Of a stretch of 64,000 nt of DNA, positions 120 to 30,344 are shown piece by piece. The notes under the pieces are model-generated. The model saw only the letters and a list, made by a program, of their open reading frames with translations, did no database searches and was not told the DNA's origin. A program made the translations under genes and the position numbers. Origin of the DNA: Blastomussa wellsi (taxonomy: Eukaryota > Cnidaria > Anthozoa > Scleractinia > Plerogyridae); assembly GCA_947652115.1 (NCBI GenBank), contig OX393563.1, positions 9,025,942 through 9,089,941 of the forward strand, written 5' to 3'. Numbering within the stretch: position 1 is the first letter of the stretch; each line of letters starts with the position of its first letter.

Positions 120-2233
120 AGAAGGCCGCTACCTGCTTATCATGACAGAAAACTTTGCAGCTCTACCAAGAGTAAAACAACTTTTGTTAGAAAAAGATTC
201 AGAGGAACCATATGTTATTTTTGGTAGTGGTTTCCCAAAAGATCAGTTATTCACTCAGGTGAAAAAGATTTTTCTGGCATTTTGTTGCTGTAATGTTGTC
301 TGTCTGTCTGTCTGCCTCTGTCTATATGTTCGCTCGAAACGTCAGCTTTTGAATCTCTTTACGGTGGCCAATTCACATTATCAACCTAGTTGATAAAACC
401 AAATTATCTTGCTATACTTCTCACCGACACAGCACCACACTTTCTTTAGAAACTTACCCACTTTATTTATATGTCCGTCAGTTTCTTGTCACTAGTGTAG
501 AAATAATGGTAAAGTGATGACGTCACAAAAACTAAATTTATGAAATTGTGGGATTTACTGGGATATTCTGAAAGTACATGATGAGCAATGCCTACTTGCC
601 GAAAATCGGCATCTTATTTCATATTTCAATTTGGGTTTGAGATATTGGCCCTTTCGTGCTTCAGTGACTCAATACAAATCATTGAAATTTTGTCTTTGTA
701 CAAAATTACAAGGATTTGTATGGAGTCACTGGAGCATGAAAGGGCCAACATCTCACCCCCAAATTGAAATAATATACTGATTTTTGGCAAGTAGGCATTC
801 TTCATCGTGTACTTTCTGAAGATCTTAATGAATCCCATAATTTCAAATTTTTAAATATTTGTGACGTCACACTTTACCACTCAATTGTTTCATATAACAA
901 ACTATATGTTGTTTTGACGGCATTTTTTACCTTAGGTTTGCCGCAACATCAACCGTGTCAAGATTTGCATGGAAACTGGCAGGACGGTGATTTTGTTAAA
1001 TCTCGAAAACCTCTATGAGAGCTTGTATGATGCACTAAATCAGGTCAGTCAAGTTTATCTTACAAAGCACATCATCGCCATTGCCCAAACTTGTACGTTT
1101 ATAATGTAATATGCAATGCGTCGAAGCAATACTTTAACGTTTCACTTGTGAATGAAACAATTTCCCATTCCAGAGTTTTAACTGTTGAGGACCGTTAAAA
1201 ACCCGCAGCCTACTATTTGTGTTTTATTTATATATAACTTTGGTCTTCCAGTATTACGTGACTTTTGGAGGAGAGAAATATGTCGATTTGGGACTTGGCA
1301 ATCACCGAGTCAAATGCCGCGTTCACAAAGATTTCAGGTAATCTCTTTTTAATGCGTTATACTGCAATACCTCTTTCGGATAAATCTATGTGGCACGTCA
1401 GCAGCGCCCCTGATAAGATTTAAGATATGACGTAATCAGGGTGGATTCAGTTCACTTGGAGCTTAATCGTATATGTAAATATGAGCCCAAATATTTGATA
1501 GTTGTTTAATGATTCGCTTTATACTTAAGTGTACCTTGAATGCAGCATTATTTTCCTGGTAAGGTTTCCTTTCAGGATTTTAAAAATCAGTGTTTCTTTA
1601 CAACAGACTGATTGTCATCGCCGGTAAAGACGTGGTTTACAACAAGTTTCCTATTCCGCTGATTAACCGCCTGGAGAAACATTTCCTTGTAATGTCTTCT
1701 GGTCTTACAGAGCCGCAGGAAGAACTGACCAGGAAATTAAAATTCTGGGTTGAAAACTTTGCTGATGTTTTCCAGCCAGCTCACGAGAAAAAGAGGTTTT
1801 TACTATAAAATTAAATAAACGCACTTTGTCTTTTTCACATCTTTTCCATAGAGCTTCATGTAGTTTGAATAAAACTATGGGTAGTTAACATCAGTACCGA
1901 AGCTTTAAATACGTGTAGGACTGTACTTTAACACTAAACTGTTTATTTATTGGTCCTGAAGCAGTTTATTGGTATAAAATAGAACCATATACAAATCCTA
2001 TTTCAGTTTTTTGGAACTACATTACTTATCGTATTATCCAGTATTGTGCACAATAATATTAAATCTCATAGCTATCTCTTTATTCTTTGTTTTCAAGGAC
2101 ATTTACAAAAGGAGACGCTTTTATCGGTTACCACGAGGACTTTGTTCCAGCTGTGGTTTTGCAAGTTTGTGCTGAGCTTCACGACAACGGCTCAGTTTTG
2201 TCGGAAGAGGACAGGCCGTCCTGGGAAGAAAAT
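120..2233 (+). CDS. RNF213: Copy A exons 1-5: C-terminal part of the last AAA+ module
   Basis: Exons 1-5 (120-258, 936-1043, 1252-1337, 1607-1795, 2098-2233) encode about the first 219 residues visible here. They contain IFGSGFPKDQLFTQVCRNIN, LNLENLYESLYDALNQYYV and VVYNKFPIPLINRLEKHF. These are hallmark blocks of the AAA+ region of vertebrate RNF213; the NR of LINRLEKH sits where AAA+ proteins place an arginine finger or sensor. The Walker A and B motifs of the active AAA units lie upstream, outside the window, so ATPase competence cannot be judged. Bases 1-119 look intronic: the acceptor ttctttgcag ends at 119 and the first full codon follows one base later. Confidence 0.9.
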
Positions 2234-5200
2234 GTAAGTTTCTCTATAAATTGTAATAAGTGTCATGTACAGAGCCACTTTCTAAAAGGCCGAGTTTTAG
2301 TTCACGATTCTTTGGCATTAAGACATTTTCCCCATTTCCAGTCCTTGATCGTTGGCATGGCTGAGTTTGGTACGGTACAGTACATAACTAAAAGATCGAT
2401 CATAAAGATCACAAGGAAGGCATCATTGAATTCTGGATTTTTCTTTTGAGTCACGGCGTTACTAACTTGGTACATGCATGTGTAAATCTTTGGCAAAAGC
2501 GATTTTACGACATATGCTTGCAACAATTTTATTTATTTATTTGTCAGATACTTTTTTTATTATTTTATTTGCCACATAAAAGAAAGAAAAAAATTGATGA
2601 AAACAATACGGCGAGGAGACCTCCAGGAAACCACCGAGCTTATAGGGGAGGCCACCTCGGTTATCAATATATTTTATAATTAGGCTGTATATGTGCGGCT
2701 TGGGCAATTCAGTATCATTTCTTTAGGAATTGTTGAAGTGCTTCAAATTGAACGTTAAGCCTGCTAATGATCGCACGCTAGTTAACTCAACGTACGATAA
2801 GTGTGGGGTCGAGAACCGTCACTAAGGAAAAGAGGTTAGCGTTTAAATTCTTCCAAAATAATACCATGTGTGTCCTGTGGAAGAAGACAGAAGACTTATT
2901 TGACCGTTAGCTAATTCACCAACGCTAGCTCGATTTAATTTGTCTACATTCCAAAATAACAACAGGTTCTTGGATGTCCTTTAGACAATGCCGTTGTTTT
3001 TCCCCAGGTACTCAGATGTTGCCAAGAGCGTTTGCTTCAATGTGCGACACCTGATTCAGTTACGCGTCTTCGCAACTCGCGCCTGAACGCACAGGCAGGC
3101 GATTTATGGACCACGTATTTCCGCGAACAGGAGCATTCAAGCCTAGTTAACTTTCTAAATAAAGCTCTGGGAGACGTCAAGTCACGTGCAACAGGCAACA
3201 CTAACAAAGCGCTGCGTGCCCAAGTAAGGATGCTGACCGCAATCATTACGATAACAATTAGCTTTTACGCAGCGGTGGCGGATACAGGGGAGAGGGGGAG
3301 GAGTGCGCCCCCCCCCCCCCCTTTCCCTAACCGAATTTTTTGTTTTTACTACTTGTTTGAAGCTGAGATTCTCGCTTATTGTCACTCAACTGAGTTTGCA
3401 CCCCCCCTATCAAAAATTCCTTGATCAACCCGTGCGTATGATTTGATCTCAGTTAAATGCACAGTACAATGATTTTTCCTGTAGCTGTACTTTCTTGTGT
3501 TGATATTTACTGGTGTTTTAGTTTTTGCGTGTTTTTTCCAGATTTCGACGCATTCACGTCTCCTGTCCTACAGAGATATTCCAGTCATAGCCGAGGCTGT
3601 TGATCTTTCTGCAGGCTGCGTGAAGTGTGTGTCACTACAGCAGTTCCAAACCGAACAACAATTCTGTAACAGCGTAGGGTAATGCATGCATTTTGTGTCG
3701 TGTATGGTTTCCAATTTAACGCTTTTCCTACAAGGGAATACATAGTAATTGCGGTGACCTGAAAGTAAAACTAGGGTGTCTTGAACAGTAAACATTTACA
3801 AACGGAAGCACACCTGTCATTTTTACGCAGTTATGTACTCAACTTTTAAGTTAAAAGTAGCTGTGACTGATTAAAGAAAGCCTGAAAAATTGACCTCTGA
3901 GATACCGTACAGGGCTCTACAAAAAAGCTATCAAGCCAAATGGGAGCTGGTCACTTTGCGAGTTCGTAGTATTCCCTAGAAGTCGGTGCATGATTTGAAA
4001 GTTATTACTGTATGCTTCCATAAGGCAACTTGGAAAATCAACTATTTAAGCAGGCAGCAGAATGTAAATGGTCCATTTTCTTTCACCGCAGGAGGGACTT
4101 TTGGGCAAGGCTCGGAGGCAGGGAGAGCTTGTTAATTGTGCAATGCGATTCTGCGGACCCAAGCTTGGGCCTGGTAGCATGCTCTCGACATTTGCTCATG
4201 GAAGAATGTCGGGATATGGAGAAAGAGTTAGATCCCGCTTCGATTTGTCCCAGTCACATCTTGATGATTGTACAGCTGTCTAGAGTAGCAGGCGGTTGTT
4301 CTGATTTCATTGGCGTGCAGGGTGAGGATTGGCAGTCAGTTCACATTGACGAGTTGTGCCCGCCTAGTGAGGAGATGCCACCGATAGAAGCATTGATGGG
4401 GCGTTCGGTTAGCACAATTTTTGACAGTGTTCTTCACGAGACAGAACCTATAGCTAACCTGACTGTAGGCCAGGTTCTTGCCAGCTGCGTTCAAGAGGCA
4501 GCAAGCAGAATTGAAGATGATGAAACTACTCTCGGAAGGGCAACCAAAAGAATTGAGTTGTTGCTGAAGTTACTTTCTTCAAAGACAAACACTGGTGAGA
4601 CTAACTTTATAATTTTTTGCTCTATGTGTATTGTCTATGGCCGTTGAAAGGAACTACTGCTGTGCAAACCGTTGCTCTAGATCGTTCTTGTTGACAATAA
4701 AGGCCGGAATAACAGTAAGCAAACAACTATTTGTCTGGAATTTCGGCTAGCTTGGAGCTTTATTTTAATAAGAACATTCATTTGTACCTTTATGGTTTTG
4801 TCTCGAATACAGTGTATTTAGTTTATAATCCTTAAAAGACATTCTTGGTAAGTAAATTGTTGATCATATTCAGTGCTGAATTTTGAATAGGTGACGGTCG
4901 TCTTGAGATGGTGCTAGGCAAACGTCTGTGTCACCTGTTACATCAAAAGGACCTGCGAGCATTGAATGAAGGAAACCAGTGGCTTCAAACCGAAGCCTTG
5001 TCGCCTAGACTACACGAGACTGGAACATTCAAAAAAGCCCTGTGGCGCCGTTTCCAATCCGTTGTGTCGCCCATCCTGGCAGAAGTTATAGCATACGCTG
5101 ATCGCGACGGAAATCTTGAATTGGCTGCCAGTGAAGAGCCTTGGGTGGTAAACCTGTGGTTGAGGCTCTTTGAAGACAGTTCCCTTACTGAGCTTAGCTT

Positions 5201-8200
5201 TGAGTCCTTTCAAGAGGGCGGGGATGTTCCAGTGGTTCGTAACAAGGTTCCAGTTGTAAAATCAGGATATCGTTCGCATGCCTTTCAGTGCAGGTTTCCC
5301 TTTTCATGGCTTCTCAAAGAGCGTATAGATAAGCTGTATCAAGACGCGAGAAGTATTGCAGGTGAGCTTCGTGATAACCTGCGATCAGGTGTTTTTATTT
5401 ATTTACTTTTTTTTTGCGGCCAGAGAAAGAAATTTTTTTCCTTCCACTGGCCGCGAAAAATAAGAACGTCTGATCGCAGTTCCTGTATTTCGCGTTACTT
5501 TTTTGTAACTGCAAGATGAGGATAGCAAAACTGCATATCCCATACATAGATACTTTATCGTACTCGCTTGTATATTTTTCCACTTGCTTAAAGGAGCTAC
5601 GTCACGGAAACTCATCTTGAAAAAACTGGCAGGTTTTTTAAGTTTGTCGTTTGTAATCGGTCTATATCGTTGTCATTCGAAACAATCCTTGTATAATTTC
5701 AGCATTTTATTATCCCGTTGGTGTTTTTCGGCATTATAAAACTCCTACTCTTAGATTTCCTTCACTTTTAAAGTAAATGGGAAAATGGCTTCAAATGCCG
5801 TGACACTGCTCCTTTAAAACGTGTCTATTATTTTTCAGCCAATTCCCATCAAAACGTCACGGAATGTTTGCGAGGATTGCTGAACAATTCAGAAGTGAAG
5901 TCTATTGTTTCAGAGGCCATCAGTGAGGGTGGCGAGGAGTCGGTAGTGGCTGGCTATCTGTACGACTTTACACACATGGTTTATAAACCTCATGTTGAGG
6001 AGGAGCTGGAGGTAAAAACTGAGATATATTACGTTCTGTTTTATCTTTATTCCTGAGAGGTGCTGTGGCCTAATGGTTAGTACGCTGGACTGGCCTGGAC
6101 ACTGCGTTGTGTAACACACTTTAGGGGCGGTACGCAGCTCTTTACAAGGTCCCACAGTATTGGCTGAAAAAATGATAAACAAACAACATTAACAATGAAT
6201 CCTAGTCCTAAGACAATAGAGCTGTGTGCTATAAATGAAATTAGGGGTTCTAGAGAGCTGCGAACTATCTCATACTTTACTCTCGGCTCAGTGTCCCTCC
6301 GCATCCAGGTGTATAAATCCCAGGGGGGTACTCAAAATAATACATGACGGGGGGGTCCGACGGAGCCTCGTACTGCAAACCCAAAAAAATACACGACCCT
6401 GAAATTTTAGACCCAAAAAAAAAAAAGGCACAAAATTTCATACCCAAAAAAATACACGACTTTAAGACCTCAATTTGGATTTATTCAATCAAACAGAACC
6501 TTCTAATGCACAATTTTGCACCTATAAGCTAATGAAATTGATATGTCCGTTAGTGTCTCTTCATCCTCCCTTCTGCTCCACATTTACAGATAGGTCCTCA
6601 TTGTGACACTTTATAACCCAAAAAAATACACAATTTTTTTCAAGACCCAAAAAAATACGTGACAGATTTTTCGACCCAAAAAAATACCGAGCATGTAAAT
6701 TTTAACCCCAAAAAAATACGTCGGACCCCCCCGTCATGAATATTTTGAGTACCCCCCCTGGGGTATAAATAATAAGCTCCGGCATGATGGGCTACTAGGC
6801 TCTTTGCAGACTTTACCATATTTTATCTTTATTCACATTATAGCTTCACGCTTCTTAAAAAGATTCAGACAAGCTAGGTCATTAAAACATCTGAACACTA
6901 CAAAAACGTGGACACACTGAAGAGTGTGTCGTTGCAGAAACGTGATAACACATTCGTATAGTAGCTGTGATATTAATTATCATCAATAAACAAACATCGT
7001 GCTGTTTTCGATCGTCAATAGCAATACATGTATTATAATCCTTTTAGGTTGTTCAAAAAGCGATTACAGCCGCTGCAAAAGAGGTTCATTATGCAGTCCT
7101 GAAGCCAGGCGAGAATTTTTCTATGGATTTGGCACTGGTACATGTGGCACATTCCCGTATTCAACAGCGACTCAACTGTTTATCCCTCTTACTGCAATCC
7201 AGGCCTGATATTGTGCCAGACCTTCGAAGCAAATTCTCTTGGGATGAAAACGAAATGGTGAGTGGTGCTCTGCTTGGCCTTCTCGTTATCTTCTTCTTCT
7301 CGTTATCACCAAGCATCCAATGCATGCACATAGGCTTATTTTCGTAAATGTAATTTAGGTACTGTAATTCTGAGCTGACTAAGTACTGTATTGTAAAGTA
7401 AACATTTTTCCTTGAAAAATAGTTCAGTTTCTCTGGACGATGTTACAGGAATAAATGGTCTTCTAAATTATCATTGAAATTGTTTTCCAGTACCCATTTG
7501 CCTAGAAAACAAGTATTACAACGGCAAAACATAATAATAATAATATAAACTAATTTAAAGATTGGAAAAAAAGCCTTTGCAGACTGCTGAAAATGTGTGC
7601 AATTAAACAGGAAAGTAAAAGCTTAAAAATATATTTTTTCGTAACCAGTGCAGCTACATGTGAACTCAGTACTATAAATATAAGCTCGACGACTGTTTCT
7701 CAGGTTAACCGATCATTAACTGATCTCAAGGGCTCGGAATTCCTAATCAAAGAACGCAGGCAAGTCACCTGTAAAAACGACGCCAAAAGACAAGGCGTTT
7801 CCGTTATATTAATAAAGAATTACCCGAAACGAATAAAATTTGTTACACCGCGTTTTTTCCAGCGAGTGGATATTGAAAAAACCTGTGGCTTTAATAAAAA
7901 AATGATTTTTTCATTTTTAGACTGTTGATGCCATGGCTCTGCAAATGTGCTTGGAGCGTATGGAACCTTGTACAGAAGATGTAGAAGATACGTCACGAAG
8001 GCAGGCATGGTGTGACCAAGTCTTGTCAGTGAAAAGCCCAGTTGAAGAAACAATCGGGGGGAACTCTTCGGGAGACAACCCACGCGTTGGTGAAAAAACC
8101 GAGTTAATCCTTACTCGGTGCAGGTAGGATTTGCTATTATTTTGCTGAATTTTTGTTCAGGTCAGTCATTAAATCCAGTATGTTCATCCTGATATTTATT

Positions 8201-11200
8201 TTGAGTATAGGGTTTATTCCCCAAGTTGTTTAGTCACGTGATGTTCAGTGGTTAGGATTTTACTTCCGATTTTCATTTTCAGATGCATGTGGCAGCGTCT
8301 TAGTGCAGTAAGAATGTTCATTGAGCACGTGTTTCCATCCCACGGTGAAATGGATCCTCAAGATTTGCAAAACATTTTAAGACTTTGGAAGGTAAGATCT
8401 GCCCGGATTTTCCATGGGAAAAGGAAACTACGTACATAGCCATATTTCTAGACTATTAGTATTTTTATTATTTCGTCGTATTTTGTAGGCCCTTGGTGAC
8501 AGGACGAACTTTTCAAAACTAGAGTCTCTCACTATTGTTGAACGGTTTTTGGTGAGCTGCAGTGAGGACTCAATTCAAAGATTGCAATCGTAAGTCTGCC
8601 ATTTAATCATCTGGGAGAGCACATGTTGGTGCGTGCGTTTCTGTTTTGAAGTTAGCATGCACATACTAATTAACCTGCTTTCTCAGCGGTGATATCACTT
8701 CCTTTGTCTGCAGAGACAAGCCTGAAGATCATGAAAAATTTCTTCACCGTTGCAATGCATTCTTCATGGATATCGTCTCAGTGTTTTGCTTTGGAGAAGA
8801 CGTGCGCTTTTTGGATCAGGAAGTGTTTGAAATGCTAATGCGGTTTGTTACAGGAACACAGTCAGCTCGTGAAACAAAAGAATTTTCACCATTTCCTGAG
8901 TTTGGAGCGGACAGGAGTCCTGTAGTGAGATCATTTCTCTTACAGCAACTCATCAACTCCAGGTAGGTCTCTCTGTGTTCATATGCCTAACTGCAGTACG
9001 TGCTTATTGACAGTATTTCAAGGTCAGTTTCATGTTGTTAGCGCAGTCACCGGTGACTGCGCGCAAACAAAGCATTTTCTCAACCTGTTTCCTTTTCGTT
9101 TGCTCTTCTCTGTTTTTTTCTTCTTCACTCCCTGTCACTTTAAATCATTTGTTACGTTTTAGTTCGCGTCCTTACTCAATTAAGCTAATTATTATTAGGA
9201 AAAACTAGTCAGCCTCCGCCATTTTCGATGGCATCGAAATTATAGAAATTGTATGGTGATGCGCAAACGTATTGTATTGCTGAAGGTTAGGTTACTACAA
9301 GTGTTCAAATTACCTTTAGCAAGGGATTTCTTTCGTTTCGACACAATCCGCGTAAAATATAATACTGAAATTCTCACATGTAAACAATAACAAAGGTGTG
9401 GCTCCTAGTCAGCCACACCTTTGTTTTTGTTTTTATCTACATAGTTTTTACGTGGAGCGTGTCAAAATGAAAGAGATCACTGAAAAACTTGCCAAAGGTA
9501 AGATCACTTCCAGGAGCACACCTTACAGCAATGCGATTTTGCTTCACCGACTAGGGCCCTTTAATGCGACTGCAGTCGCCCTTTTAAGGAACATATTACA
9601 TTTGCTATATTGCTTTTACTGACTGTATGTAATCTTCATCATCTTTCCGTCCAGTGACGAAAAAGCAAAGAAACACCTCGCGCGTTTCCTTTTAGAAGCT
9701 CAGGGTCTATCATCAGAAGTGCCTCATATTCTAAACGTTTGTTCTCTCGCTGTGCAGTGTATGGAGGTATGTATAGAGGGCAAATGTCATATTTAAAGAT
9801 AAACAATTGATAGCTAGGTGCATAAAACTGTGGTGATAACTTGGGAAACCATGGCCTACGATTAACCCCAGGTATTCTCTTGTTTTCCAAAAGCAGTGTG
9901 GTAGAATATTCCTGAAATACATGATCATACTAAATTGCCTATACTTTTCTGCACAAATGTATCCCTTTAATTGTAGAACTCGTGGACCAGTTCGTTTTCC
10001 AAGAATGCCAATCTCGAACTTTGCATTTACATCGGCCTCATTATCAAGTTATGCCAAGACGCACTCAAGATCCTGAATGAGGAATTCACAAGTTCCGATG
10101 AACTGCAAGTCGATTCACTAAAAGCAATAGCAATGGCGCGTTACACTCTAGGTACGACTGCGGAGTTCCTGTACCTGAGCTGTGTTAGTGATGACGAGAA
10201 GTGGAGAAAACATGACGTTCGTGTTGCCCTGGATCATCTTTTCACCAAAGTTAAGGCGTTGTGTACATCCGGACCTTCCAGGTCACCTGCTCTGTATCTG
10301 CTTAAACAGCTGGTCAAACGTTACGGGGGACATTCAATTGCCACAATTTCTCAAAACGAAGAACTTTCATGGATCGTTCCTGCTGAATTCCAACGAAGAA
10401 GGGTAAGATGCTTGTTTCAGTCTTTGTTACATCATAACGCTGATTATTTACTTGTTACCTTGAAATATATTGACACAGCGATGGAAGCATTGAGTGAGGT
10501 ATGTGTTGCGAGAACGTGGACTGTCTTTTGACCCAACATGCACGAAAACGGATACGAGTTAAGCACAGGATCTACAAAAAAATTCTCTTGATTCGCAAAA
10601 ACATGTATTTTGGGGTCTGCAAGAATATTTCCTAGAGTATAATAGACCAATTTCGATATTTAAAATTCCGGTTGAAACAATAGACCTCAGCACGAGGCTC
10701 CGGAGTATAAATTATAGAGTTTGTGGGATTTATTCCCCGGAGCCTCACAGTGATGTCTATTGTTTTAGGCTTAATTTTAAAGTATCGAAATTGGTCTATT
10801 GGTGACAGGCTCAGTGGCCATTTTATCTTGATCATCGAATCATATAATCTATATGTATTTCTGTATCAATAACAGATCTGAGCATTTTATATATTTTTGA
10901 GTAACTTAAACTTTTAAAAGAATGATTTTTATCCTTAATTGTTTTTCTTAGGTGTCCTTAGCATTTGTATCTTTTTATTGAGTACGCGACCCCACAAGCT
11001 TGTTAGCTTTGAAATTTTTATCATCTATAAATAAAGGTTGTATGTATGTATCAATTCAAGACGAACAAATTTTTCACAAATTTAAATACCATTATTTTAC
11101 CTATTTTTCTACAGGATGATGGGATGAGTCTAGACAGGTTCTTGGTGTATGGAGAGCTGTATCGGGAAGTGAGAGATTCTTTAGCAAGGGCTATCTTAAG

Positions 11201-14200
11201 TGGCAACCTGGATGAGCTTGTTGCGTCACTAGAGGTAACATGTAACCTCTCTGTGACCCTTTTTGATATGAAATCTTGCCTGTTTTGAAGTAAAGAATTT
11301 CTTATATAATAGCGGTAAGAGCTGTGAGTGCGTTGTATTTCTCTACAATTTTAAGCTTATTGTGACTTGGGTTTCGTTAAAGGTTAGTCTGCAGTCGGGC
11401 CTAGTGGCCAATCAGGCCGGAGCTTATCCCGGTTTCTGTAACATGAAGCGACAGAGTATTTCTACTCCCCCCTGGATGGGACGCTAGTCCATCGCAGGGT
11501 TACCCCCCAGCAGTAAATTCGCCGGTACCCATTTATACACCTGGGTTAAGAGAGGAACTGTGAGAGTAATGTGTCTTACCCAAGAACACAACGCAGTCCC
11601 CGGCTAGAGACTCGAACCCGGACCGTCCGATCCGGAGTCCAGAGCACTAACCATTAGGTAACCTGCGATCAGGCAATTTTTTTTAGACGTTTTCTTTTTT
11701 TAACTGATGAAGAAGAACCGGTGGCCATCCGCCTGCTAAGTCAGCTGTCAAAACCACTGCAGTTAATTGGCTTTAATTTGGTGGATCGGATTTCCACCAG
11801 GCGCGAAAAATGTCTGCAGAATAATTTTTTGGATACGCAACAAATATATTTAAAAAACGTCCTCGCGTATAAAAATGAAAATTTATTTGGAAGAAGGTTG
11901 AACTGGTGTTCGCGGGGTTATTTCAGTAACTAAGACGAATTATTTCTATAACAACATTCGTTGGGTTTATAACGTGGGCGATTAAAGTATTTTTAATTCA
12001 CCGGTAAACACCCTTAAATTATTTCAAAAACCCGTTGGGCTAAACACCAAAACGTCTCCACGCAAACAGATTACGCGTCTTGTAAGCATTTAAAAACGCT
12101 CTCTGTGCTCGGCCTTTTGAGAATTATGCCATAAAATTGTCAGGGTTCCAGCTAAATCGTTACAATCGTTCGAACTTGTAAACATACTTTGTCTCGACCG
12201 GAAGCCTCATTTAAACAAGACAGCCAATGAGAACACAAGCACGTCATAAGCATTGTTTCTCGACCAATCAGATAAAAAGCCAAAATCTGGCTTTTTTACA
12301 TGCAACCTGTACAAGAAATGTATCATGCCCTCCTTCCCAGAGATGATAAGTAGGGAGGGAGGGCATGATCGCAGGTTAACCATTAGGCCACTACGCCTCC
12401 CACTGGGTTTCGTTAACTCTACAGTTATTCGAAAATTGTTAGTTGATATTCCAACTGAATGCTGCAAGGTAAATGTGATTGCAAAATGGTTAACGTACTT
12501 ACCAATAAGGTTATACGTGTTGTTATTTTTAGGCTTTGCGAGAAATACCAGGACATGCCAGAGATATCGTTATACTGCTGGCTGTGTATCGAGAGGTCGC
12601 TGTACCGCAAGGAATGTGGGCACAAGACCAGCAGTTTCAACATGACGTAGGTTGCATCTTTTCCGCTCACAGTAAACTGCTTACTGCAAGCATTACATGA
12701 TTTTTTCATTATGTGTAAAGTATATTGTGGTTCAATAGGCCATTTCCAAGCTGCCTCCTTTTCAAAACGAGTCTAAGTGCGAAACCGTTCCTGTTAATGA
12801 TGAGTTTACTTTGCTTGACAATGCAGGGTAGAACACATTTTTTTGTGAATGGTTTCGGACTCGTTTTTAAACAGAGGCAAAAAAAGAACTCGGAAATGGC
12901 CTATTTCACCCTTGCTATAATTTCCTATTTTCCTTTGTTCTGGTGTATGGTAATTTATGATAATAAGTATAATACAAGGGGGAATGACAAATTGTACCAA
13001 GGCAAAATACATTTTTTAATTCCTGATTAAGGGATTTGCAAAGGAAACAACAACACTAAGTTAAATATGGTTTTGGTTTTCGAGTTATTCATGGTGATAT
13101 GATATTTTATATTTTTCAGAAATGTGCACAAATAGCAGATGTCATCCTGAAAAGGGGAAGATTCTTGTCTACAAATGTAAGTCGAAATACAAGTTATATA
13201 AATATTGCCGGTTCAGTTCTGTTTGCAGGAAGTTCGTCGTAACACCAAAATATTGCACATTAATGACAGCTGGATTGTATTGTTGCATATAGAAGCGTGC
13301 ATCTTTGTATTGAGCATTGTAACACCAATCGAACAGAGAACTATGCCTTTTCTCCTGAGTGTTAACGTTTTCGTGTTTTTACGCGTGTTTATTAATGCTT
13401 ATTACCGTAACCTTTGTTTCTTTTAGTTTGAAGATGGTATAGAATACCTTATAACATGAAATTTTCGCGACACTTTAATTTCGCTATTTTTTAAAAGCGA
13501 AAATAAATGTCGCGAACATAAAGTGACGCGAAAATTAAGTGACTCTTCATTGTGGCCATGATACTGAAATTAGTTCTTACACAAATTTCAGCCTTGGACA
13601 CCTGTCCGTTCTTCAAAGGCTCTTAAATATTTGCTTTTCTCAGCCTCGACGCTCTTATAAGAAAAAGTTCTTACAAAAAGAGTATAATTATAAAAATATG
13701 TATGGCTTCTGAGAACTGTTTCGTTGTTATGGCTGTTACTATTGAGTTAAGTCGTAATTCAAGAAATATTTAACACCGTGATTACGATAGAAATAGTCAA
13801 ATTAAACTAATAACGTTGGTAAAATCGCGAAATTAAAGTGAGCTTGGATACAACGTATGCCACCTCCGAAATCGCGAAATAAACGTGTTGCGAAAATTTC
13901 ATGTAATAAGGTAATACCGAAATATAGCATCGAAAATTTCCTTGTATTATTTGTCTATATAGCGGTAACAATGCAACTACTTGGTTTAACGGTGTACGTT
14001 TATCCAGTTGCCCAGTTATAAGTGACAGAGGCTTCAGGGGTTTATAGATCTCAGTTCATAAATAAACAACAAAGCAAGATAAAACTTTTAAAGTACTTTA
14101 TAATTAGCGAGCGTACCTTGGTTCTCCATGAAATATCCCACACCACGGTAAATCCATAAATGTTGTGCTGTTGATATCTCATATAGGCTCGCCATTTGGC

Positions 14201-17200
14201 AAAGGATCTTTTGAAGAATCCCAAGGGACTGCGATTTCCGTTCCTTCCCGTTCAAGAGACGCAGAGCGAAATAGAAAGGGCCTTACCCGAGATCTTGTTT
14301 CACGTGACGTCTGTCCTCCAGTGTATCGAGTTTGATGTGATGTTGGAGCCTTTAAGGAGGATGATTCTTGCTCCAAGCGATATGCTAGTAGGTCGAATTT
14401 TCTGGCCAGGTGTCAGATCATGTTATAACAATATTTACAATTATTACAGGGCTGTGGTACTCAAAGGACCAATACCAAATTCACCCAAAAGGAGTTCTCC
14501 ATTGTCGATCCAATATTTTCTAAGTATTGGACCGTGTAGTGTCCCCAATTATCCCGCCTGCGATTTGGCGTATAAAATATAAAAATAAAAATTATTGGTT
14601 TGTAAAACAACATAAGGAAATTTTGTTCCCCCACCGAAACGCGCAGGTATTCCTTTCGAGTGGTTATATAGTCATGCGCACCACAAGGCTTCAAGCCCAC
14701 AAGGTTTCTGACGTCAACTTGCCCGTCGGCATATGTTGAGTGAAAACTTCAACCTACACGTCTGCGTTTTTTATTGGTTAAATCGAACGACATATAGCCG
14801 ACACTTGCCATAAAGAGGCTTATATTTTCAATCTCCTTGCAGGGTTCTTTTCTTCCGACTATGCCAGAAGATAGCTTTGATGAGGCTCGAACAGGCTTGT
14901 CGGAGGAAGGCAATTGGTACGGTAAGTAAACTATATACAGCTAAAATAAACATATCGCGGCTTTCATTGGAGTTCAACAAATGGAAACATCAACGTTGTT
15001 GGCTTGAAATCCATCGCTTGCTAATAGTAAAGGCTTGTTCTACCTGTTTGTCTATCTCTCTAGATCTGTCAGTCGGTTTGTTTATTGACGTAACGTATAT
15101 GGAATTATTCAGAGATGAACTGCGAATGGAGATGGGAATTAGAAATGATCAGCACAGTGAATTTCCAATTTAAGCAATTGGAATAAAGAAGCCTGAAAAT
15201 CCAGGGCTTCAACATTTCGTAGTTTTTGCTAAAAACGTTTCCCCTGGCTTTTTCCCCTGTCTTTTTATGGCAGGTGCAGCTGAATATTTTCATAGAAACT
15301 GCGCGGTCAACATTGGATGTCATCATTAGAGAAAGTTGATCATTTCAAGTTTTCATATATGTACTGGATTCAAAACGAGAAACAAGTCAAGTCGATTTTT
15401 CTGACTATGTCTAACTTCATGTTTTTAGAATGTCCTTCTGGTCATCGGTACTTTGTTGGTGACGTAAGTACTGCACTCTATTAATTCATTCATTCATTCA
15501 TCCATCCATTCAGTCATTCATTCATCCATTCAATCATTCATTCATCCATCCATCCATCCATCCATCCAACCATTCATGCATTCATTCATTCATTCATTCA
15601 TCCATTCGTTCGTTCGTTCGTTCGTTCGTTCATTCATTCAATCATTCATCCATTCATTGTATAATTAACTCGCTTCAAGTTGAGTTCGTTATATATTTAA
15701 CATTATGGCAATGGTATCCTGCAAGGCTCGATTGAACACTTGACATTTATTTTTACCTGTCATGAGTATCCAATGAGAGCTCTTGGCATAGACCAAAGAA
15801 TTGGTGTTTTCAGGACCTAAGAAAGCTAAATCTTCTGTCTATATGAATGGCTAACATTGGATAATGGCAAAAAAATGTGAAAATAAATGTCAAGTGTTCA
15901 CGGTTTCGAGTGTCCTCACTGTAATAGTTTTGTTTCTGTTTGGTTTGTTAATTATAAGTCTATCCTATCATATTCGCTTAATTTTTACCATTTTCTTCAA
16001 TTGTAGTGCGGTAGACCAGATGAGACACGTGATTGTCCCTGGTGCGAGTCAGGGGTAGCAATTGGAGGCGAAGGTCACCATTTAGTCCAAACCAATAGGC
16101 TGGCAAACAGGTAATCATGATATGAGACATACAGAATGAAAACGTCACGTTAGTTCGTGTAACATATAAATTATTTACAGATCAGAGGCGGTTTCAGTCA
16201 GTATTCGCGGAATTCTTTATTACGTTTTCAGGCACGACCGTTCTAACACTGGACACATCTTGGGAGCCCCCCAGCGAGTAATTGCAGAACGGGATCTTTC
16301 TCCCGCCAACGTAAGCCTACTAAGAGTCATTCTACATTCAGCCATGCTAACCGGAGCCTACCAACAACCCGAGGTAAAATGTTTTATTTCGTCTGGAACC
16401 AGCTCATGTTAAACTATGGATTTGCCTTCGCAAAATCGATATTGCTAATTGGTATCCTTCACTGGATTATGGGACCCCCTATAGAATGACGGGGTTCTCG
16501 TCGGAAAATTTCAAAAGCTCACGTACAAGAATCTCATTATATGGGTGCGGTCCGAATTCATTTATACCCCTAGGAGATGCCTATTCTAAAATAACAATTT
16601 AACCTGCACTGTTAAATTGATTACATTCGAGAATTTAAAGGGGAACGGAAGGCGAAAAACCACTTTTTAAAAAGTCATTCATACGAAAGCACATGATAAG
16701 TCGTAATCAAATCGCCATATTTTAGGATGTGAACTTACCTTTTAACCTGATTGTAGCAGCATAAAGCTCCGTACCAGAAAAATTTGAACGTCCGCCATAT
16801 TGAAAGGCTTGGGCGCATAGCATGACATCGCAATGCACACCTGGACACAGGCAGCCCAAGCTCACGTTGTGATCAGGATCATACTGCATAATAGATGTCA
16901 TGACAAAAATATAAGAGTTTGTATGGGAATAATTTACAACACCTTTTAGCAAACCGAAATACTGCCAAATCTTAAATAAAATTGATTTACCTTACTTTCA
17001 CTGTGTTTTTATTCTTGTCTGAACGCTTATTTTGCCGATTCTTAGCCATTTAGGCGAGTTATCGCTTTGTGGGTTCCCCACTACAAAGAAAAGAACAAGG
17101 CTGCACACTCCAGTTCGGAACGCCCGACGAGCCAAGCGAAAAATCCCAGCATAAAATGGTCAAACGGCCTCAAATCCATCGCGAATTCCAAGAAGAGATG

Positions 17201-20200
17201 TTCAAGTTTCATTTTAACTCAACAACAACTCAGTCCAGGCTCTGTCATCGATGCGAAGCGGCCGTTTGCTTGCCTGTACACGCTCGTCACGACACACGAC
17301 CGTTAAAAAGCTCCTTGGTAACCCTGCCTCGATAATCGTCCTGAGGGGACCAGGGGAGTCAAACAAAACTTGTTGAGGGCAATTGACGGTGTGGTACTCC
17401 GGTGAGGAAAAGTTTGTTGATGAGGCGGGGTTACCAAGAAGTTTTTTAACGGTCGTGTGTCGTGACGAGCGTGTACAGGCACAATGGCGATCTTTTTACC
17501 ATGGATTTTTTAAAGCAAACGGCCGCTTCGCATCGATGACAGAGCCTGGACTGAGTTGTTGTTGAGTTAAAATGAAACTTGAACATCTCTTCTTGGAATT
17601 CGCGATGGATTTGAGGCCGTTTGACCATTTTATGCTGGGTTAGTCAATTTTATTTAAGATTTGGCAGTATTTAGGTTTGCCATGACAGCTATTGTGCAGT
17701 ATGATCCTGATCACAACGTGAGCTTGGGCTGCCTGTGACCTGGTGCAATTAAACGAATACGAAATTATATCCCATTTAACATTTTGATCAGGGTCTATAA
17801 TAGCCTTCTTCAGCCTCACTTTGATTATTGTAGTGTGGTATGGGGAAACTGTGGAAAGGGCCTTTCTGAAAAGCTTCAAAGGCTTCAAAATCGTGCTGCC
17901 CGCATTTTGATGTCTGCGAGCTACGATAGTGATTTAGATGAGGTATTCCGGGCATTAGGGTGGCGTAAACTCTGTCATCGAAGATTAGAAAAGAAATCTA
18001 TCATGATGTATAAGACTTTACATGGGATGACACCAAAATATTTACGATCAAAATTCGTTTATCGCGACAACGCGAGTGCTTATCGTTTGAGGAATACCGA
18101 AAACAAATAAGTTCTTCCACAACCTCGCACTGATTACCTGAAGAGAAGTTTTTCATACAGTGGAGCTCAGTTATGGAACAACTTACCCACAGAATTAAGA
18201 CAAGCGACTTCCTTAAGCGAGTTTAAGACAAAACTGAGTCGCCACAGTTTTAAGTAAATTTTTATTATAATTCTTAAGCGAAATTTTTAAGTATATTTTT
18301 TGAACACGGCCTCCATGAAAAGCAGTTTTTATTCTTTTGTATTTTACACCTTTTTTTGTAGCTAGGAAGATAGGTAGTTAGTTAATTACCATAAATACTT
18401 CTAAATAAGCTGATGGAAATACCGTGTATAAATAAAGTTATCTTATCTTATCTTTTTTCTTTTTGTTTTCCACAAATCTATGTTATTTCTACCATTTCCA
18501 GGGGTCAAATAACAAAATTGTCTGTGGTCTTCCGTTCTCCTTTAAAGTTATTTCCTTAACAGATACGTTTACTTTTCCTGACTTTCTTCAGACCATAAAG
18601 GCCCCTAACGACAACTCCAGCGGCGGTCATTTTGGTTAAAACACTATAAGCGCGCGGTCAACGCCACCAATGTTACCTCCTTCACCCCTGATATTTTTTA
18701 TAGGGTACTTCCTCACCCCCCCCCCCCCCCCCCCCGAGCATTTAGAAGGAGTTTTGCTGATTCTTCGCATTTAATCAGTATGCGTAGCAGCTCTGAATTC
18801 CACAGATATAAATTCCTCGGAAAAGCTCAGTTTCAAGGTGATATTATGAATTTATGATGGCCATTTTAAAGTATGTGATTAATTGAATTATGTTTTAACA
18901 CTTCCATTCGCTCTCAACCACAAGGTTTCAAGTCATCTAATGCAACCAGAAGTCCAACCAGATGATGTTTGTGAATTTCTCCGGCAACATCTTCTCAATG
19001 ATGTAAGAAATATATCGACAAGCCTGGAAAGGAGCGAAGATGAAGTGTTGCTGATGATTCATCTTGTTTTATCTGAAATTATGAACCGAGCAACAATCAG
19101 TAAGTCAATACGGTCAACTTGAATAACAGGGTCAATCCAGATACATTTTTGAGGCAAGGTGTCAGCATGGAATTCTGAAGGGTCAAAGTCCGACTGCTAC
19201 AGCATTTGTCAAGTCAGGAAGCAGACGTTCTCAGGCGTTCGATCTGAGACATCTGTTCTCTGGAACGCCGAAATAGCGCTACATCCATAAGGAGGGTTTC
19301 TCGCTGTTTTCACTTGCGTTTTTTGGAACACAGGAACAGTCTTTAAAACAAATTATAAACTTTTATTTTATTGACCTTAGCAATTACTTTTTTAACTTCA
19401 AGGAGGACATGATTATAGTGGAAAATGGTCAACAAAACCAGAACGAAAGGAATGGGAAAACGAGTTCGTAAATGTTTTTGCAAGGCCTGTCAGTACGGTA
19501 AGAGTTGCACTTAATTTTTCATATCTTGTTTTTCGTCACGTGACGACCCTAATAACGACTGAGGAGGAAATTAGTTGTTGGCTCCATTACAGTATTTCTG
19601 TTTTTATTTCTGTGGATTATTCATACTTGAGTGACTCTGTGTTCACTGGATCTATATTGACGGAAAGTTCGTAATACACCTGATTTGGGCGTGTGACTGA
19701 ACTCCAGAGTGCCTTTGGGCCAGCACCCGCAAAGGAGTCACGTATTCTCAGAAAGGGGAGGAAATTGATGTTTATTTAACAAGTTTTTATTGTTAGAGTT
19801 CATTTAAAAAACTGTTAAAAAATATTACTAATAGCTTCTTTCTCCGTTCATAGAACCTAGAAGAGCACTTGCAGAATTTTTATGCTCTATCTGTCAACGA
19901 TAGAAGATTAGGTAATGGAACCTCAGACGGAAGTACTTGGGACACCTCACCTTGTCCCCTCCCCCGAAACAATGTTGCATATTAGGTAGCATTGCTTTTT
20001 TATGAAACAAAACATTGCAAAGGGGGAGAGGGGAAGTAAGACTGAAATATTTGTTCTTGTTTCAAGTGGTAAACACCGAGCAAGTGTCCTAACAATTCCC
20101 TCTTAGATTGTAGCTATACTGAATTTTACTGAAGTTTCTATACTAACTTAATTTATACTTGCACCTAGTTTCAGATATAAGTTCGCAAGCACTGCCTTTT

Positions 20201-23200
20201 TTATCATTCCAAACATTTTGGCGGATCATCCCAGCCAAAAGACAGAAATCGTTACACTATTTTAAGTGCATGCAGCATTAAAATTCTTAGCTTGTGTTAT
20301 GTTGCTTTACTGTTAGAAAAAAGGTGTTGTCGAGTTTGAATGAATAGTGTGCTTTATGGTAAACTACAGGAAATGATCCACTCATGCGACAGATCTACGA
20401 GGTGGATGTGCCTCCCCCTACACGCACAACAGCAGATATCCATCCTGGTCATGCGGCATTTTGGAAGTACAGAACACGCGTCACAGTCGAACACGTCGTT
20501 CGCCAGTTTCAAGACGTTAAGTCAAATGTGGCTGCTTGCAAGGTCCTCGGCAAGTTTCTCGCTGAGGTACGTGTTATTTGAATGATGGCAGCCCTTTTAC
20601 TGAAGGGCACTGGATAATTTTAGAATTTTAATTTGCCTTTTTGTGTAGCTGACGGTTAATTTTTTTGTCTTAGGAACATGGCCTTCGTGCAGTTCGTCAC
20701 CTGCCGGACATATTGGCCTTACAGAGAATATTGACGGATCGCTTTCGTAGACGAATTGACAGAGTCAAAGCCAATCAGCTAAAGATACGAGACTTCTTAC
20801 AAGAATTCCCAAAAGGTTATCCATTTAAAATTTGTGTTTTGCTCTGCTTTACAGAGTTAAGGTGGATTCATTTTAAATAAATGGAAGGTTTGGACTTAAG
20901 GTCTCATCACCAACGGTTCATAAACTATTTCCACGTTTATACACTTCCAGCAATTACTAATGATAGGGAACACAGTTTGGTACTTTGTTGTAATTAACTA
21001 GTCCCACATGTAATTAAGAATTCTACGGAATTTATGGAAACCAAATTTTAACTTGTATGTTTAATTTGATAAAATTGCATGTTCAAATAAGAGATTCCGT
21101 GTTTAAATAAAAGATTCCATCCATCCATCCACCATTTAACCAGAATTTGTCATACGAAATCGAAAAACTTCGACTGTTTTCCCTTGTGAAAATTGTAATC
21201 ACTCCCAAGTGCATGCACCCTTTTCCACCGCAACTTAACCTTAATTATAATAAAAAATAGACGAGATTCCGCTTTATGTTCTACTTCGTCAAACTGCTGA
21301 TCATGATATAGGACCTCGTAAAAAATAGCAAGAACCAAGTTTTATATATCAAACTAAATTTAATTTGGTAACACAAAATTGAATAAAGTGATTCGAAACT
21401 AACCTTTTACATTTATTGTTAAGTTGCAGGTCAGAACCGAGAAAACGTAACAAAGTTATTCCGAAGTTTCAGTGCTGCATGGGATCAAGTTCGCCTTCAG
21501 TTGAGTTCACAAGGTGACAACCTATTCTGCATTTTGTTTTGTTGTTGTTGTTGCTTTCAGTTGGACAGACTTCAATAAAGCGAAAATCCATAACTAAAGG
21601 CGTGAAGGGAGAACTCCATATATTGCAACCTAGCTATTTTCGGTTGTGTATTGACCATGTTCATCTTCTATTTCTAGGACGTTTTGCTCCTACCAAAGAG
21701 CAGTGCTCACAGCCAATAGACATGAACTCTACCATTTCAGTGTTACTACCAGCTGATGTAGGTGCCGGCGTTTGTTGCAAAGGATTGCTCTTTTTCTTGG
21801 TCAATACGCACAATGAACTTGTGCAAGCATACTTCAATTCCAACGGGAGTGCACGGTAACTACATTTAATCAAAAATGTTTCTTTTCATTCCTTTAATGG
21901 CACTTGAGTTAGTGCTCACTCCTGTTTGGAGAAGAAAAATAAATTAAGGAGCTTCGTCACGGTTTGTGTCTTTTGAATAAATTAGCCAATTTTTTTTTTC
22001 AAATTCGTCATTTGCAATCCGTCTCAATCTTCTACATCCTTAACCATCCTTGTTCCGTTTTGGTTTAGTATCACTTCTTTGGTGTTTTCTTTCCATAGTA
22101 AACTACTGTTTTCGGTTTCCAACATTTTAAGGGGTCCGTCACAAAAAAGGACTCAAAATATCATGAAGTGGCTCCTGTAAGGTTACATTCGAAATTTTCT
22201 TTTTAGAGTCTGCAGGCTTTTTCCTCTCCCCATGAAGTTAAACCATTTAACACCCAAACTATATATTTTAAACACATTTGTAACTCAGTCATTATCAGTC
22301 ATAATTAAATCATAAATACGAAAAATCGTTTATTTCCCGAATAACAGATCCGCCGAGAAGATTCCCCTTATTGAAGTGTCTGGATCGCAGCTGATAGCGT
22401 ATGACTCTGAGAAAGACCTCCTGCCTGTGATGCTGGCCAACTGCTCCTACTCATTAGAGGTCGGAAAAGAAACGCTACTGCAGTACAACTGGGAAACCCT
22501 TGAAAAGCAGATAACTGACAGGTTCATACGGGGAAGACCCCTAGTGGATTTTGAGGTAAAAATCGTTTTGGCTGTAGAGAAATTACTTCTATTGCAAAGT
22601 ACAAAGATGAATTTCACGCCTTGTCATCTTGTGTAAGTTCTTTTCATCACTTACTCTTTGGTGATGTTTATTTATGTTGTGGTCTGGAAAACATTTCTGT
22701 CCATCTGACTGTCTGTAAGTCTCTCTGCATGTCTATCTTTCTGGCTGGCTGTCTCTGAGTCTCTCCAAACAGCTCAAGTTTCTTTCTAATGATTTTATCA
22801 TGTTGCATGATTTCAAGCGTACGCGTCATCCCAAACATTATAACTGAAAAGTGGTTTACAGATATGCCTTTTTTTACGTTTGTCTTAGGTGGAGGATTTT
22901 TTGTTTCGTGAAGACGCTCGTGATGATATCTCTTTTGACAGATTGAGATCCAAGATTCCACAGGTTTGCACAATTTGTACAAATTCAAAGGCACTGGTGT
23001 CGGCGCAATTAGTTCAACTTCAGACATTCCATGCTTGAAAATGAAACCCATGCATCATGCTTCACGCGGTGACTTTCAAGATTTTTTGTACGACCCGGTA
23101 ACAAGTACAAAATAAGGGGCACCAGTCTGCCAATATCCCACTGCGTATTTACGACTCATGCAGTATATTTGATTTTGCAGCAAGTGTCCGTGTTATTCTT

Positions 23201-28233: not shown

Positions 28234-30344
28234 TTATTTATTTGGAATATATTTGAACCTCTTATAGTCCTCGAGACTCCAAACTTTTTCTAATGTTCCA
28301 GTGGGCTTATATCCTTGAAATCCTTCGATGCCTGCAGGGCCTAAAACGATACCGTTTATTAAAAGAGAAATGATTTTTTGGCCATCTGTTTCCAAACTAA
28401 GAGTATGATGACCTGAAGAAACATCTGAGCCAACGAAGTAAACACGAGTTTGGAAATGAACGCTACCGAACGCTTTTCCAATTATGGCCACAGCGTTCGT
28501 TTTGTCTTTATCAAGCCACATTCGTACTCTTCCTGTATTTTGTCTCATTCGGCGCAGTATGATCCCCACCGACCATTTGTGCAAGTTTGTTGGAACTTGA
28601 AACGAGTATTCTATTGAGCCACCTGCTCGATGGGACACCCAACCACCAAACGCATCTGTCCGAGGATCAGAAGGGAATCCCATCTTTGCTTTGATACTCT
28701 TTAATGGAAGCTCGCTAAAACCCCGTTCTTTTTGGACACTTACTTTAAAAGACTGATGTATAGTAAGTTTTCCCCAGCCTGGGTTTGTGGAAGCCCAGCA
28801 AAGTGACGAGTCACCCATCACCAGTTTCGAAGTATCAGCGAACAAGGGTTGCTTCACTGTAGACTTCGCACAGTAAGGTTGTCCTGTTCTCTTTAGCACG
28901 TTCTGAAAGTACCGGATTATCATCAAAGCAACTTGGGCATGCCCTTTGACATCAATATGCAAATGATCCCTATTAACCATTCCCGGTCGTATGTAAGGTT
29001 TTCGGGTTCCATTCGCTGAATACAAAGGACATAATATATCGCGCCAGCTGAACAATGTAATCCCATAGTGAGTTGCAAGTTCCTGTTGTCCCAGATCCTC
29101 GAGGTTGTGGCAACGTGGATTTTTAATGCTGCTCAAGGAAGCGCTTTTCTTAACCAGATCAACCAAACTTACGTACAGCAGTAAAGGAAACGATGAAAGC
29201 GACAACACTCGTCTGGTCAGCAGTTCCATCGGTCGAGCAGTTTTACCGTGTAAGTATCCATAATCATTAACTGACAACTCGATAAGCACAATATCTGGTT
29301 CGTCATTCTTAGATACAAAATTTTGCAGGCAAAATGTGAACAAGTCGCTTCCCGTACCTCCAAGTGACAGATTTTCCACTGCCAGCTTTGATCCGGTATT
29401 TGGAAAAATCGCCTGACCCCACCATTGAGAAACGAGCTGATGATACAAACGCTTATGGTCTGGAATTCCTCCACCTGCCGAATTAGATCCACCAATCACA
29501 ATCATTTTGATGGGCTCGCGCCTCATCACTTTGTTTATCAGTGTCGAGACTCTACAGGGATCCTTATCATTCATATAAATAGCTTTAGTAATGTCTTCTT
29601 CACTCACACTCAAATGGTCAATTTTTCGGTAAAGATCTCTATCTTGCCAAAATGAAAAAGGTTCTTGATTAAGCCACTCCATTTGGGGAACTGCAGGGTA
29701 GTAGCCCCTTAAAAATATTAAAATAGTGGTGTGTTAACGAAACAACAGAAATTATACTTCAATTGATGACGTCAAAGCAGTGTACACATACCCATACTTA
29801 TTGACGCTTCAAACCTGGCTCCCACAAATACCGAGACGTCACTGTCTGCACGAATTTAAACTCTATTTAGTCCGACAGTTCCTAATCCTCTAGCATGGGG
29901 TAATAGACTATTGAAGAGTTCGTTTCTTTTGTTTTACATCGTTTTGAGTCAGTTCCATTATTTTTATGCGCGCCTTAAATTTTCCAGACAAAAGTTAAGA
30001 ACTTTTACTTACTTTTATCATTTTCAAACGCAAAAAAAGGAGTGACCGTTGTATGGAAATTTCAACAAGAATTACTTTTACAGATAAGCGCATGGTAGGG
30101 ACAACAATTCATGGCAGTTATAGGAACACAAAAGGTGACCGTGACTCCGAAAATTAAGGACAAGCGATTTACAAACACAGGTGGTAAAAACAGTCTTTCC
30201 TTCAAAAGTGAGCGTTAGCTTATTCAGTTGTTGGTCGGTAAAACTATTTTTCAACACTTACCCAGTTGATCTTGTTATCATAGTTTTCTTCTGCGCGGCT
30301 TGACAGCAATGATAAACCATTACGAGAAACAAAATCCAAACCAT
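28234..30344 (-). CDS. Secreted SGNH/GDSL-type hydrolase-like protein, intact copy, two exons
   Basis: Exon 1 is 30344-30262 and exon 2 is 29707-28234; together 518 residues. Exon 1 encodes a signal peptide (MVWILFLVMVYHCCQAA) and ends in phase 2; exon 2 starts after atttttaag. SGNH blocks are visible: GGSNSAGGG with the likely catalytic serine S102, GGTGSD (G145), ELSVND (N175) and RDHLHID with D275 and H278 as the other triad members. The first block is GGSNS, not GDS. The last ~230 residues form a second domain (FGGWVSHRAGGSIEYSF, then VRMWLDKDKTNAV). It is probably an esterase or deacylase acting on a glycan or lipid outside the cell; the substrate is unknown. Two broken relatives lie on either side on the same strand. 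Confidence 0.85.

What the first reader, a model, noticed from the sequence alone, without database searches (positions are those of the whole stretch)
7921..8962. Copy A is an RNF213-type ligase with no RING finger
Seen: FIEHV and CNAFF, which flank the RING in vertebrate RNF213, are only 67 residues apart, with one cysteine and no C-x2-C. The introns in this stretch (159, 97 and 124 bp) cannot hide a RING exon. Known: vertebrate RNF213 ubiquitylates through its E3 core and RZ finger, and its RING is reported as dispensable. Inference: this coral-type protein is a natural case where the RING is absent while the RZ finger keeps human spacing, so the RING may be a later addition or a secondary loss.
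Basis: partly seen in the sequence, partly recalled or inferred. Interest (0 to 1): 0.8.

Follow-up and report, generated by a model that had tools for sequence, protein, structure and literature searches.

The report
Coral RNF213 copy without RING exon
This coral carries two giant RNF213-type ubiquitin ligases that have cleanly lost the exon for the RING finger that gives the protein its name but keep the RZ finger, while a third copy in the same genome still has the RING exon, so nature has made the same RING deletion that biochemists made in the lab.

Summary
Window 120-25942 (+) encodes an intact 2095-residue C-terminal part of an RNF213-type gene (copy A) without a RING: 66 residues separate FIEHV from CNAFF, with one Cys. 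Copy B (- strand) lacks it too, and a RING model finds none in the window or 60 kb of flank. The new point: a third copy in the same genome, 1.12 Mb beyond the window, has the RING on one symmetric 186-bp exon (phase 2-2); copy A has a 124-bp intron of the same phase at that place, and 62 codons is exactly the length difference to the Oculina RING+ protein. Sponges, octocorals, Nematostella, molluscs, lancelets and vertebrates have a RING there, so it is ancestral and was lost, not added later. The loss is old (the A clade includes sea anemones), and segments of 59-64 residues are missing at the same place in gene models of an octocoral, lancelets, a crinoid and one Stylophora gene. RZ zinc residues and C-terminal domain are kept; in the model the two helices flanking the RING site are joined by two residues. 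Most likely A is a working RZ-dependent ligase, a natural counterpart of the lab-made delta-RING protein. Activity and transcripts are untested.

The parts
120..6011 (+). Copy A exons 1-10 of those in the window: AAA6 and start of the E3 module; exons 120-258, 936-1043, 1252-1337, 1607-1795, 2098-2233, 3008-3223, 3542-3678, 4092-4594, 4891-5361, 5839-6011
   Evidence: GT-AG junctions, open frame; phmmer to mouse RNF213 E 5.9e-146
7048..8123 (+). Copy A exons 11-12 (7048-7257, 7921-8123), E3 module before the RING site
8283..8391 (+). Copy A exon 13, holds FIEHV; 109 bp, same length as in the RING+ paralogue
8489..8589 (+). Copy A exon 14, helix before the RING site; 101 bp as in the RING+ paralogue; ends inside a codon after its second base (TC|)
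8590..8713 (+). 124-bp phase-2 intron: the place where the RING+ paralogue has its 186-bp RING exon
   Evidence: no RING by HMM
8714..8962 (+). Copy A exon 15, starts with the last base of the split codon, holds CNAFF
9445..14387 (+). Copy A exons 16-22 (9445-9497, 9666-9766, 9977-10402, 11115-11234, 12533-12646, 13120-13176, 14187-14387); acceptor of exon 17 chosen to keep the frame
14843..16110 (+). RZ finger of copy A on exons 14843-14921, 15429-15463, 16007-16110: YECPSGHRYFVGDCGRPDETRDCPWC
   Evidence: PF20173 E 9.2e-18, 64 bits, cut-off 27; aligned to mouse RZ without gap in this stretch
16232..25945 (+). Copy A remaining exons to the stop codon TAA at 25943-25945 (C-terminal domain)
   Evidence: open frame; phmmer to human RNF213 E 3.8e-82 over 2-600 of 615 residues
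50324..63732 (-). Copy B, second RING-less RNF213-type gene, convergent with A; 18 exons joined from 63732 to 52179, RZ exons 51494-51457 and 51211-51114, further homology to 50324
   Evidence: PF20173 52.1 bits
56190..57079 (-). Copy B intron (890 bp, phase 2, AG|G) at the RING-exon site; no RING found

Best explanation
Copy A (and copy B) are RNF213-type AAA+ E3 ligases that lost the RING by clean loss of one symmetric exon in a duplicated gene. Shown: the RING+ paralogue in the same genome has exon 13 (109 bp), exon 14 (101 bp), a 186-bp RING exon with both ends in phase 2, then exon 15; copy A has 109 bp, 101 bp, then exon 15, with the same phase-2 junction. Losing 62 codons leaves the frame open and, in the model, the two flanking helices joined by a short turn. 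Shown: AAA6, E3 module, RZ finger and C-terminal domain are present and in frame in A. Inferred: A still recruits its E2 through the C-terminal domain and transfers ubiquitin through the RZ finger, as reported for the delta-RING mouse protein, so the RING was a part that a duplicate could shed. Also inferred: the RING+ copy does whatever job the RING has.
Confidence: 0.82

Rival explanations
1. The RING is a later addition and copy A shows the ancestral state.
For: RING-less forms are numerous in cnidarians (26 of the 33 RING-less rows, counting A and B).
Against: Sponge proteins (Oscarella P0047/P0123, Corticium P0071), octocorals P0034/P0121, Nematostella P0030, lancelets, hemichordates, molluscs and vertebrates have a RING at the same place; independent gains at one codon would be needed.
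Confidence: 0.04
2. Copy A is a decaying or inactive duplicate: loss of the RING is one step of degeneration.
For: RING-less copies are duplicates; some B-clade relatives have Tyr where the RZ His is (P0015-P0018, of which P0015-P0017 are isoforms of one gene by name, and P0028). No expression evidence.
Against: 39 exons in the window with GT-AG joins and open frame; RZ ligands kept in A, in the four coral A-clade rows that cover the site (P0001, P0002, P0004, P0005) and in two anemone rows; C-terminal domain kept; 84% identity to Oculina within a clade that includes anemones.
Confidence: 0.1
3. A RING exists but is missed: far away, trans-spliced, or lost through mis-assembly.
For: Gene models and assemblies can miss exons; this assembly has an N run in the paralogue.
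Against: RING HMM negative over 40 kb up, the window and 20 kb down; introns of 97 and 124 bp; A-clade proteins of Oculina, Stylophora, Porites, Actinostola and Actinia are RING-less too.
Confidence: 0.02
4. RING loss in A and B was selected as escape from pathogen proteins that seize the RING's E2-binding face, while the RING+ copy keeps the RING's other job.
For: A bacterial effector binds only the RING of human RNF213, and the delta-RING form is no longer degraded (PMC12440826, passages); RING-length gaps recur in separate lineages.
Against: I looked for no such effector in coral microbes and know of none; neutral loss after duplication explains the same pattern. The paper itself argues that the RING was kept under this pressure because it has a function.
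Confidence: 0.1

Closest known systems
Vertebrate RNF213 (mouse 6TAX/6TAY, human 8S24/9JWG)
   Same: AAA6, E3 module, RZ finger spacing, C-terminal domain
   Different: No C4HC3 RING between the last two E3-back helices
Laboratory delta-RING RNF213 (mouse 3941-3999 replaced by Gly-Ser-Gly-Ser-Gly, PMC7311170, passage)
   Same: Same module removed at the corresponding place; the lab form keeps autoubiquitylation
   Different: Natural form lacks 62 codons by exon loss, without linker, in a paralogue beside a RING+ gene
RING+ RNF213 paralogues of corals (P0007 Oculina; own genome C4:10208104-10208289)
   Same: Same exon 13 and 14 lengths and phases around the site
   Different: They keep the RING exon
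Other RING-less RNF213 rows (Xenia P0122, Branchiostoma P0042/P0053, Antedon P0060, Stylophora P0010)
   Same: 59-64 residues missing at the same place compared with a RING+ relative
   Different: Separate lineages; known here only as gene models, without DNA

Membership tests
RNF213 (AAA+ E3 ligase) | Homology through AAA6 and E3 module | tested here: met
   phmmer to mouse RNF213 E 5.9e-146; E3 region E 5.4e-26
RNF213 (AAA+ E3 ligase) | E3-back/E3-shell fold | tested here: met
RNF213 (AAA+ E3 ligase) | RZ finger with zinc ligands and the conserved Cys between them | tested here: met
   PF20173 64 bits, cut-off 27; C/H/C/C/C aligned to mouse without gap in that stretch
RNF213 (AAA+ E3 ligase) | C-terminal domain (reported E2 recruitment) | tested here: met
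   E 3.8e-82 to human chain 4228-4832; role from PMC12075652, passage
RNF213 (AAA+ E3 ligase) | Two active ATPase sites (AAA3, AAA4) | tested here: inconclusive
   Upstream of the window: one Walker A (GETGCGKT) and two Walker B-like motifs in exon hits; a second Walker A not seen by the pattern
RNF213 (AAA+ E3 ligase) | RING C4HC3 between the last two E3-back helices | tested here: not met
RNF213 (AAA+ E3 ligase) | Ubiquitin ligase activity | not testable with these tools
   needs biochemistry
RING-type E3 ligases | RING domain | tested here: not met

The most novel reading that the evidence does not exclude
The RNF213 RING is a detachable cassette on a symmetric exon that animals have shed repeatedly from duplicates, with a RING+ gene still found in each of five coral genera and in this genome; the RING-less copies form an old hexacoral RZ-only ligase class with its own role (for example one that RING-seizing pathogen proteins cannot touch), and skipping of the RING exon may also serve as a splice switch.
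Probability: 0.2. Interest if true: 0.75.

Novelty: new variant of a known kind. Interest (0 to 1): 0.55.

Why it matters
What the RNF213 RING does is open: PMC12440826 calls its function elusive although patient mutations hit it (passage), and reports conflict on whether RING deletion matters. A genome with two natural RING-less paralogues beside a RING+ one makes the question testable by comparison: a RING-specific job should fall to the third copy alone. It also settles polarity: the RING is old and was lost. A further hint: the residue after the last zinc Cys, the linchpin that is Leu in mouse (PMC7311170, passage), is Lys or Arg in 11 of 11 cnidarian and 7 of 8 lancelet rows, 6 of 10 hemichordate/echinoderm, 4 of 10 sponge and allied, 6 of 80 molluscan/other/unlabelled, 18 of 60 fish and lamprey and 4 of 11 reptile and mammal rows, so early RINGs may have been catalytic.

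Tried and rejected
Later-addition reading: rejected, see rivals. A RING hidden in an intron or elsewhere: searched with a family-specific HMM over 124 kb, none. Deciding whether A and B lost the RING once: not resolved. RZ finger of the RING+ copy in this genome: not assessable, 5000 bases of L024 read N; I left it there; Oculina P0007 carries both RING and RZ models in its precomputed list. Many bivalves looked RING-less in precomputed Pfam lists, but the alignment shows divergent RINGs, nearly all with three C-x2-C. The 27 rows in neither class: 17 with 0 to 6 residues at the site, two with 17, one with 51 (P0046, looks RING-less but partial), and seven of 95-114 residues, five of which hold three C-x2-C and so are RING-bearing but short. 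Fish rows P0208, P0216, P0229, P0242 are short at the RING; as unchecked gene models I build nothing on them. Foldseek gave no match at E<=0.001; the VIA second look did give RNF213. Print: six searches showed in their listings no paper on natural RING-less RNF213; the library holds open-licence papers only. I read passages, never a whole text, of nine papers: PMC11549300, PMC12440826, PMC12075652, PMC7311170, PMC11252262, PMC13319465, PMC9481131, PMC9993606, PMC11299980. Two are cnidarian papers that name RNF213 once each, as induced in activated immune cells and as rhythmic in a coral; PMC9993606 reports RNF213 expansion in symbiotic bivalves; PMC11299980 made an RNF213 tree with invertebrates whose result I did not see, so it may touch RING content.

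Full report
What is there. The window lies in a 368-Mb genome (G000, contig C4:9025942-9089941); the best database match of copy A is a stony coral protein, Oculina patagonica P0001, 84% identical over the 1100-residue query region. Copy A on the + strand has 39 exons in the window, from 120 to the stop codon at 25943-25945, GT-AG joins, no internal stop, 2095 residues from AAA6 to the C-terminus. Its N-terminal half lies upstream: exon hits cover 2109 of residues 1-2150 of P0001, the first at C4:9004359. Copy B, on the - strand, is a second gene of the family, 42-43% identical to A in two large exons and joined over 18 exons. A and B converge.

The missing RING. From FIEHV to CNAFF inclusive copy A has 76 residues and copy B 73; the RING+ Oculina paralogue P0007 has 138. 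Mouse RNF213 has 67 residues between the two aligned stretches, 3411 and 3479. Neither Pfam nor a RING HMM made from 77 RNF213 RINGs finds a RING in A, B, the window or the 60 kb around it (best window score 9.9 bits, E 0.24), while the positive control scores 38.6 bits in Pfam and 48.7 with the HMM.

The exon. A search of the whole genome with the Oculina paralogue's RING region hits C4:10208102-10208293 at 88% identity, far above other RINGs (E 1.9e-35 against 5.6e-8). There exon 13 is 109 bp, exon 14 is 101 bp, the RING exon is 186 bp (C4:10208104-10208289) and exon 15 follows; both ends of the RING exon split a codon after its second base. Copy A has 109 bp, 101 bp, then exon 15 with the same phase; 138 minus 76 is 62 codons, 186 bp. 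Leaving the exon out of the paralogue on paper keeps the frame and gives YTRKAV, the join seen in Stylophora P0010. Copy B has the same phase at its 890-bp intron. A probe with exon 15 finds three places in the genome: A, B and this gene (counts can be lower bounds by the tool's own note).

Distribution. Three homologue searches gave 242 proteins (each listed 120, of 1416, 1218 and 241 matches). Of 244 aligned rows with A and B, 184 have a RING segment, 33 lack it cleanly, 27 are in neither class. Of the 33, 26 are cnidarian (A and B included; some are isoforms), two lancelet, one crinoid, four fish. Five coral genera show both kinds: Oculina, Desmophyllum, Stylophora, Acropora, Montipora (in Montipora from two species). 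Five RING+/RING-less pairs differ in length by 59-64 residues at this place; four of them are neighbours in the trees, P0040/P0042 was not placed. These are gene models, so skipped exons or annotation errors are possible there; for A and B the DNA itself was read. For Porites, Actinia and Actinostola only RING-less proteins were among the rows; whether they have a RING+ gene is open, since length limits and capped lists could hide one.

Tree. With the RING segment left out, 29 of the 244 rows gave an IQ-TREE tree (LG+C20): A clade (corals plus the anemones Actinia and Actinostola, 100/99), B clade (100/100), RING+ coral clade (100/100, with the RING-less P0010 inside), Nematostella (RING+), octocorals (RING+ with RING-less P0122 inside), bilaterians and sponges RING+. 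Three changes suffice. A+B as sisters has 49/45 support, and alternatives are not rejected. The wider quick tree of 55 of 122 rows needs five changes, four forced by starred branches. Long branches are flagged by the program. The root was put on sponges by me.

What is kept. RZ fingers are found in both copies (64 and 52 bits); A aligns to mouse without gap there, B has one residue more. Of the 27 RING-less rows of the first set, 17 show C-H-C-C-C at the five RZ positions, five have Tyr for His, five give no full reading, among them copy B whose joined piece stopped short; its own RZ reads ECGNCKHPYFIGECTQPMEKSSCPDC. The C-terminal domain matches human RNF213 at E 3.8e-82, which matters because E2 recruitment by that domain is reported (PMC12075652, passage).

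How it most likely works. In mouse the RING is inserted between the last two helices of the E3-back, has Leu3986 in place of the usual linchpin, and can be replaced by a short linker with wild-type-like autoubiquitylation (PMC7311170, passages). In human cells RING inactivation spares ubiquitylation of Salmonella and Listeria; the results report partial impairment at the Toxoplasma vacuole while the discussion says no effect (PMC11549300, passages). Against this, a RING-less RNF213 failed in a FOXO1/Treg assay (PMC11252262, passages). Copy A is best read as a natural delta-RING, RZ-dependent ligase. This last step is inference; no coral protein was assayed.

Verdict.

Noticed in passing
window 51494-51457 and 51211-51114 (-): Copy B's RZ finger has one more residue before the His and an extra Cys two residues before it; some B-clade relatives (P0015-P0018, P0028) have Tyr in place of the His, so B-type RZ chemistry may differ.
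   Followed up: partly
L021 2905-3090 and homologues: The linchpin position after the last RING Cys is Lys/Arg in 11 of 11 cnidarian and 7 of 8 lancelet rows but in 6 of 80 molluscan/other/unlabelled and 18 of 60 fish and lamprey rows; the last C-x2-C was picked by pattern and at least P0207 is misread.
   Followed up: partly
window 28237-29733 (-) and 35064-35582 (-): Two similar-looking open frames between A and B; the first weakly resembles a GDSL-like lipase (PF13472, 23.6 bits, below its cut-off of 32.9), the second gave no Pfam match at 0.001.
   Followed up: partly
window 31436-32152 (-): Open frame with an Integrase_H2C2 domain (54.3 bits), probably part of a retroelement.
   Followed up: no
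L024 1461-6460: Run of exactly 5000 N in the RING+ paralogue, between exons where its RZ part would be expected.
   Followed up: no
G000 C20:14781576 and 14791039, C1:32335662, C2:14602676, 14627634, 14651955: Six further RZ-finger places (PF20173) not hit by the RNF213 exon-15 probe; perhaps other RZ genes such as ZNFX1-like ones (guess).
   Followed up: no
P0208 (Salvelinus), P0229 (Esox): Two fish gene models also short at the RING (75 and 81 residues), a possible further loss.
   Followed up: no
PMC13319465: A cnidarian immune-cell paper lists RNF213 among effectors induced in activated cells (passage); which paralogue is not said in the passage.
   Followed up: no
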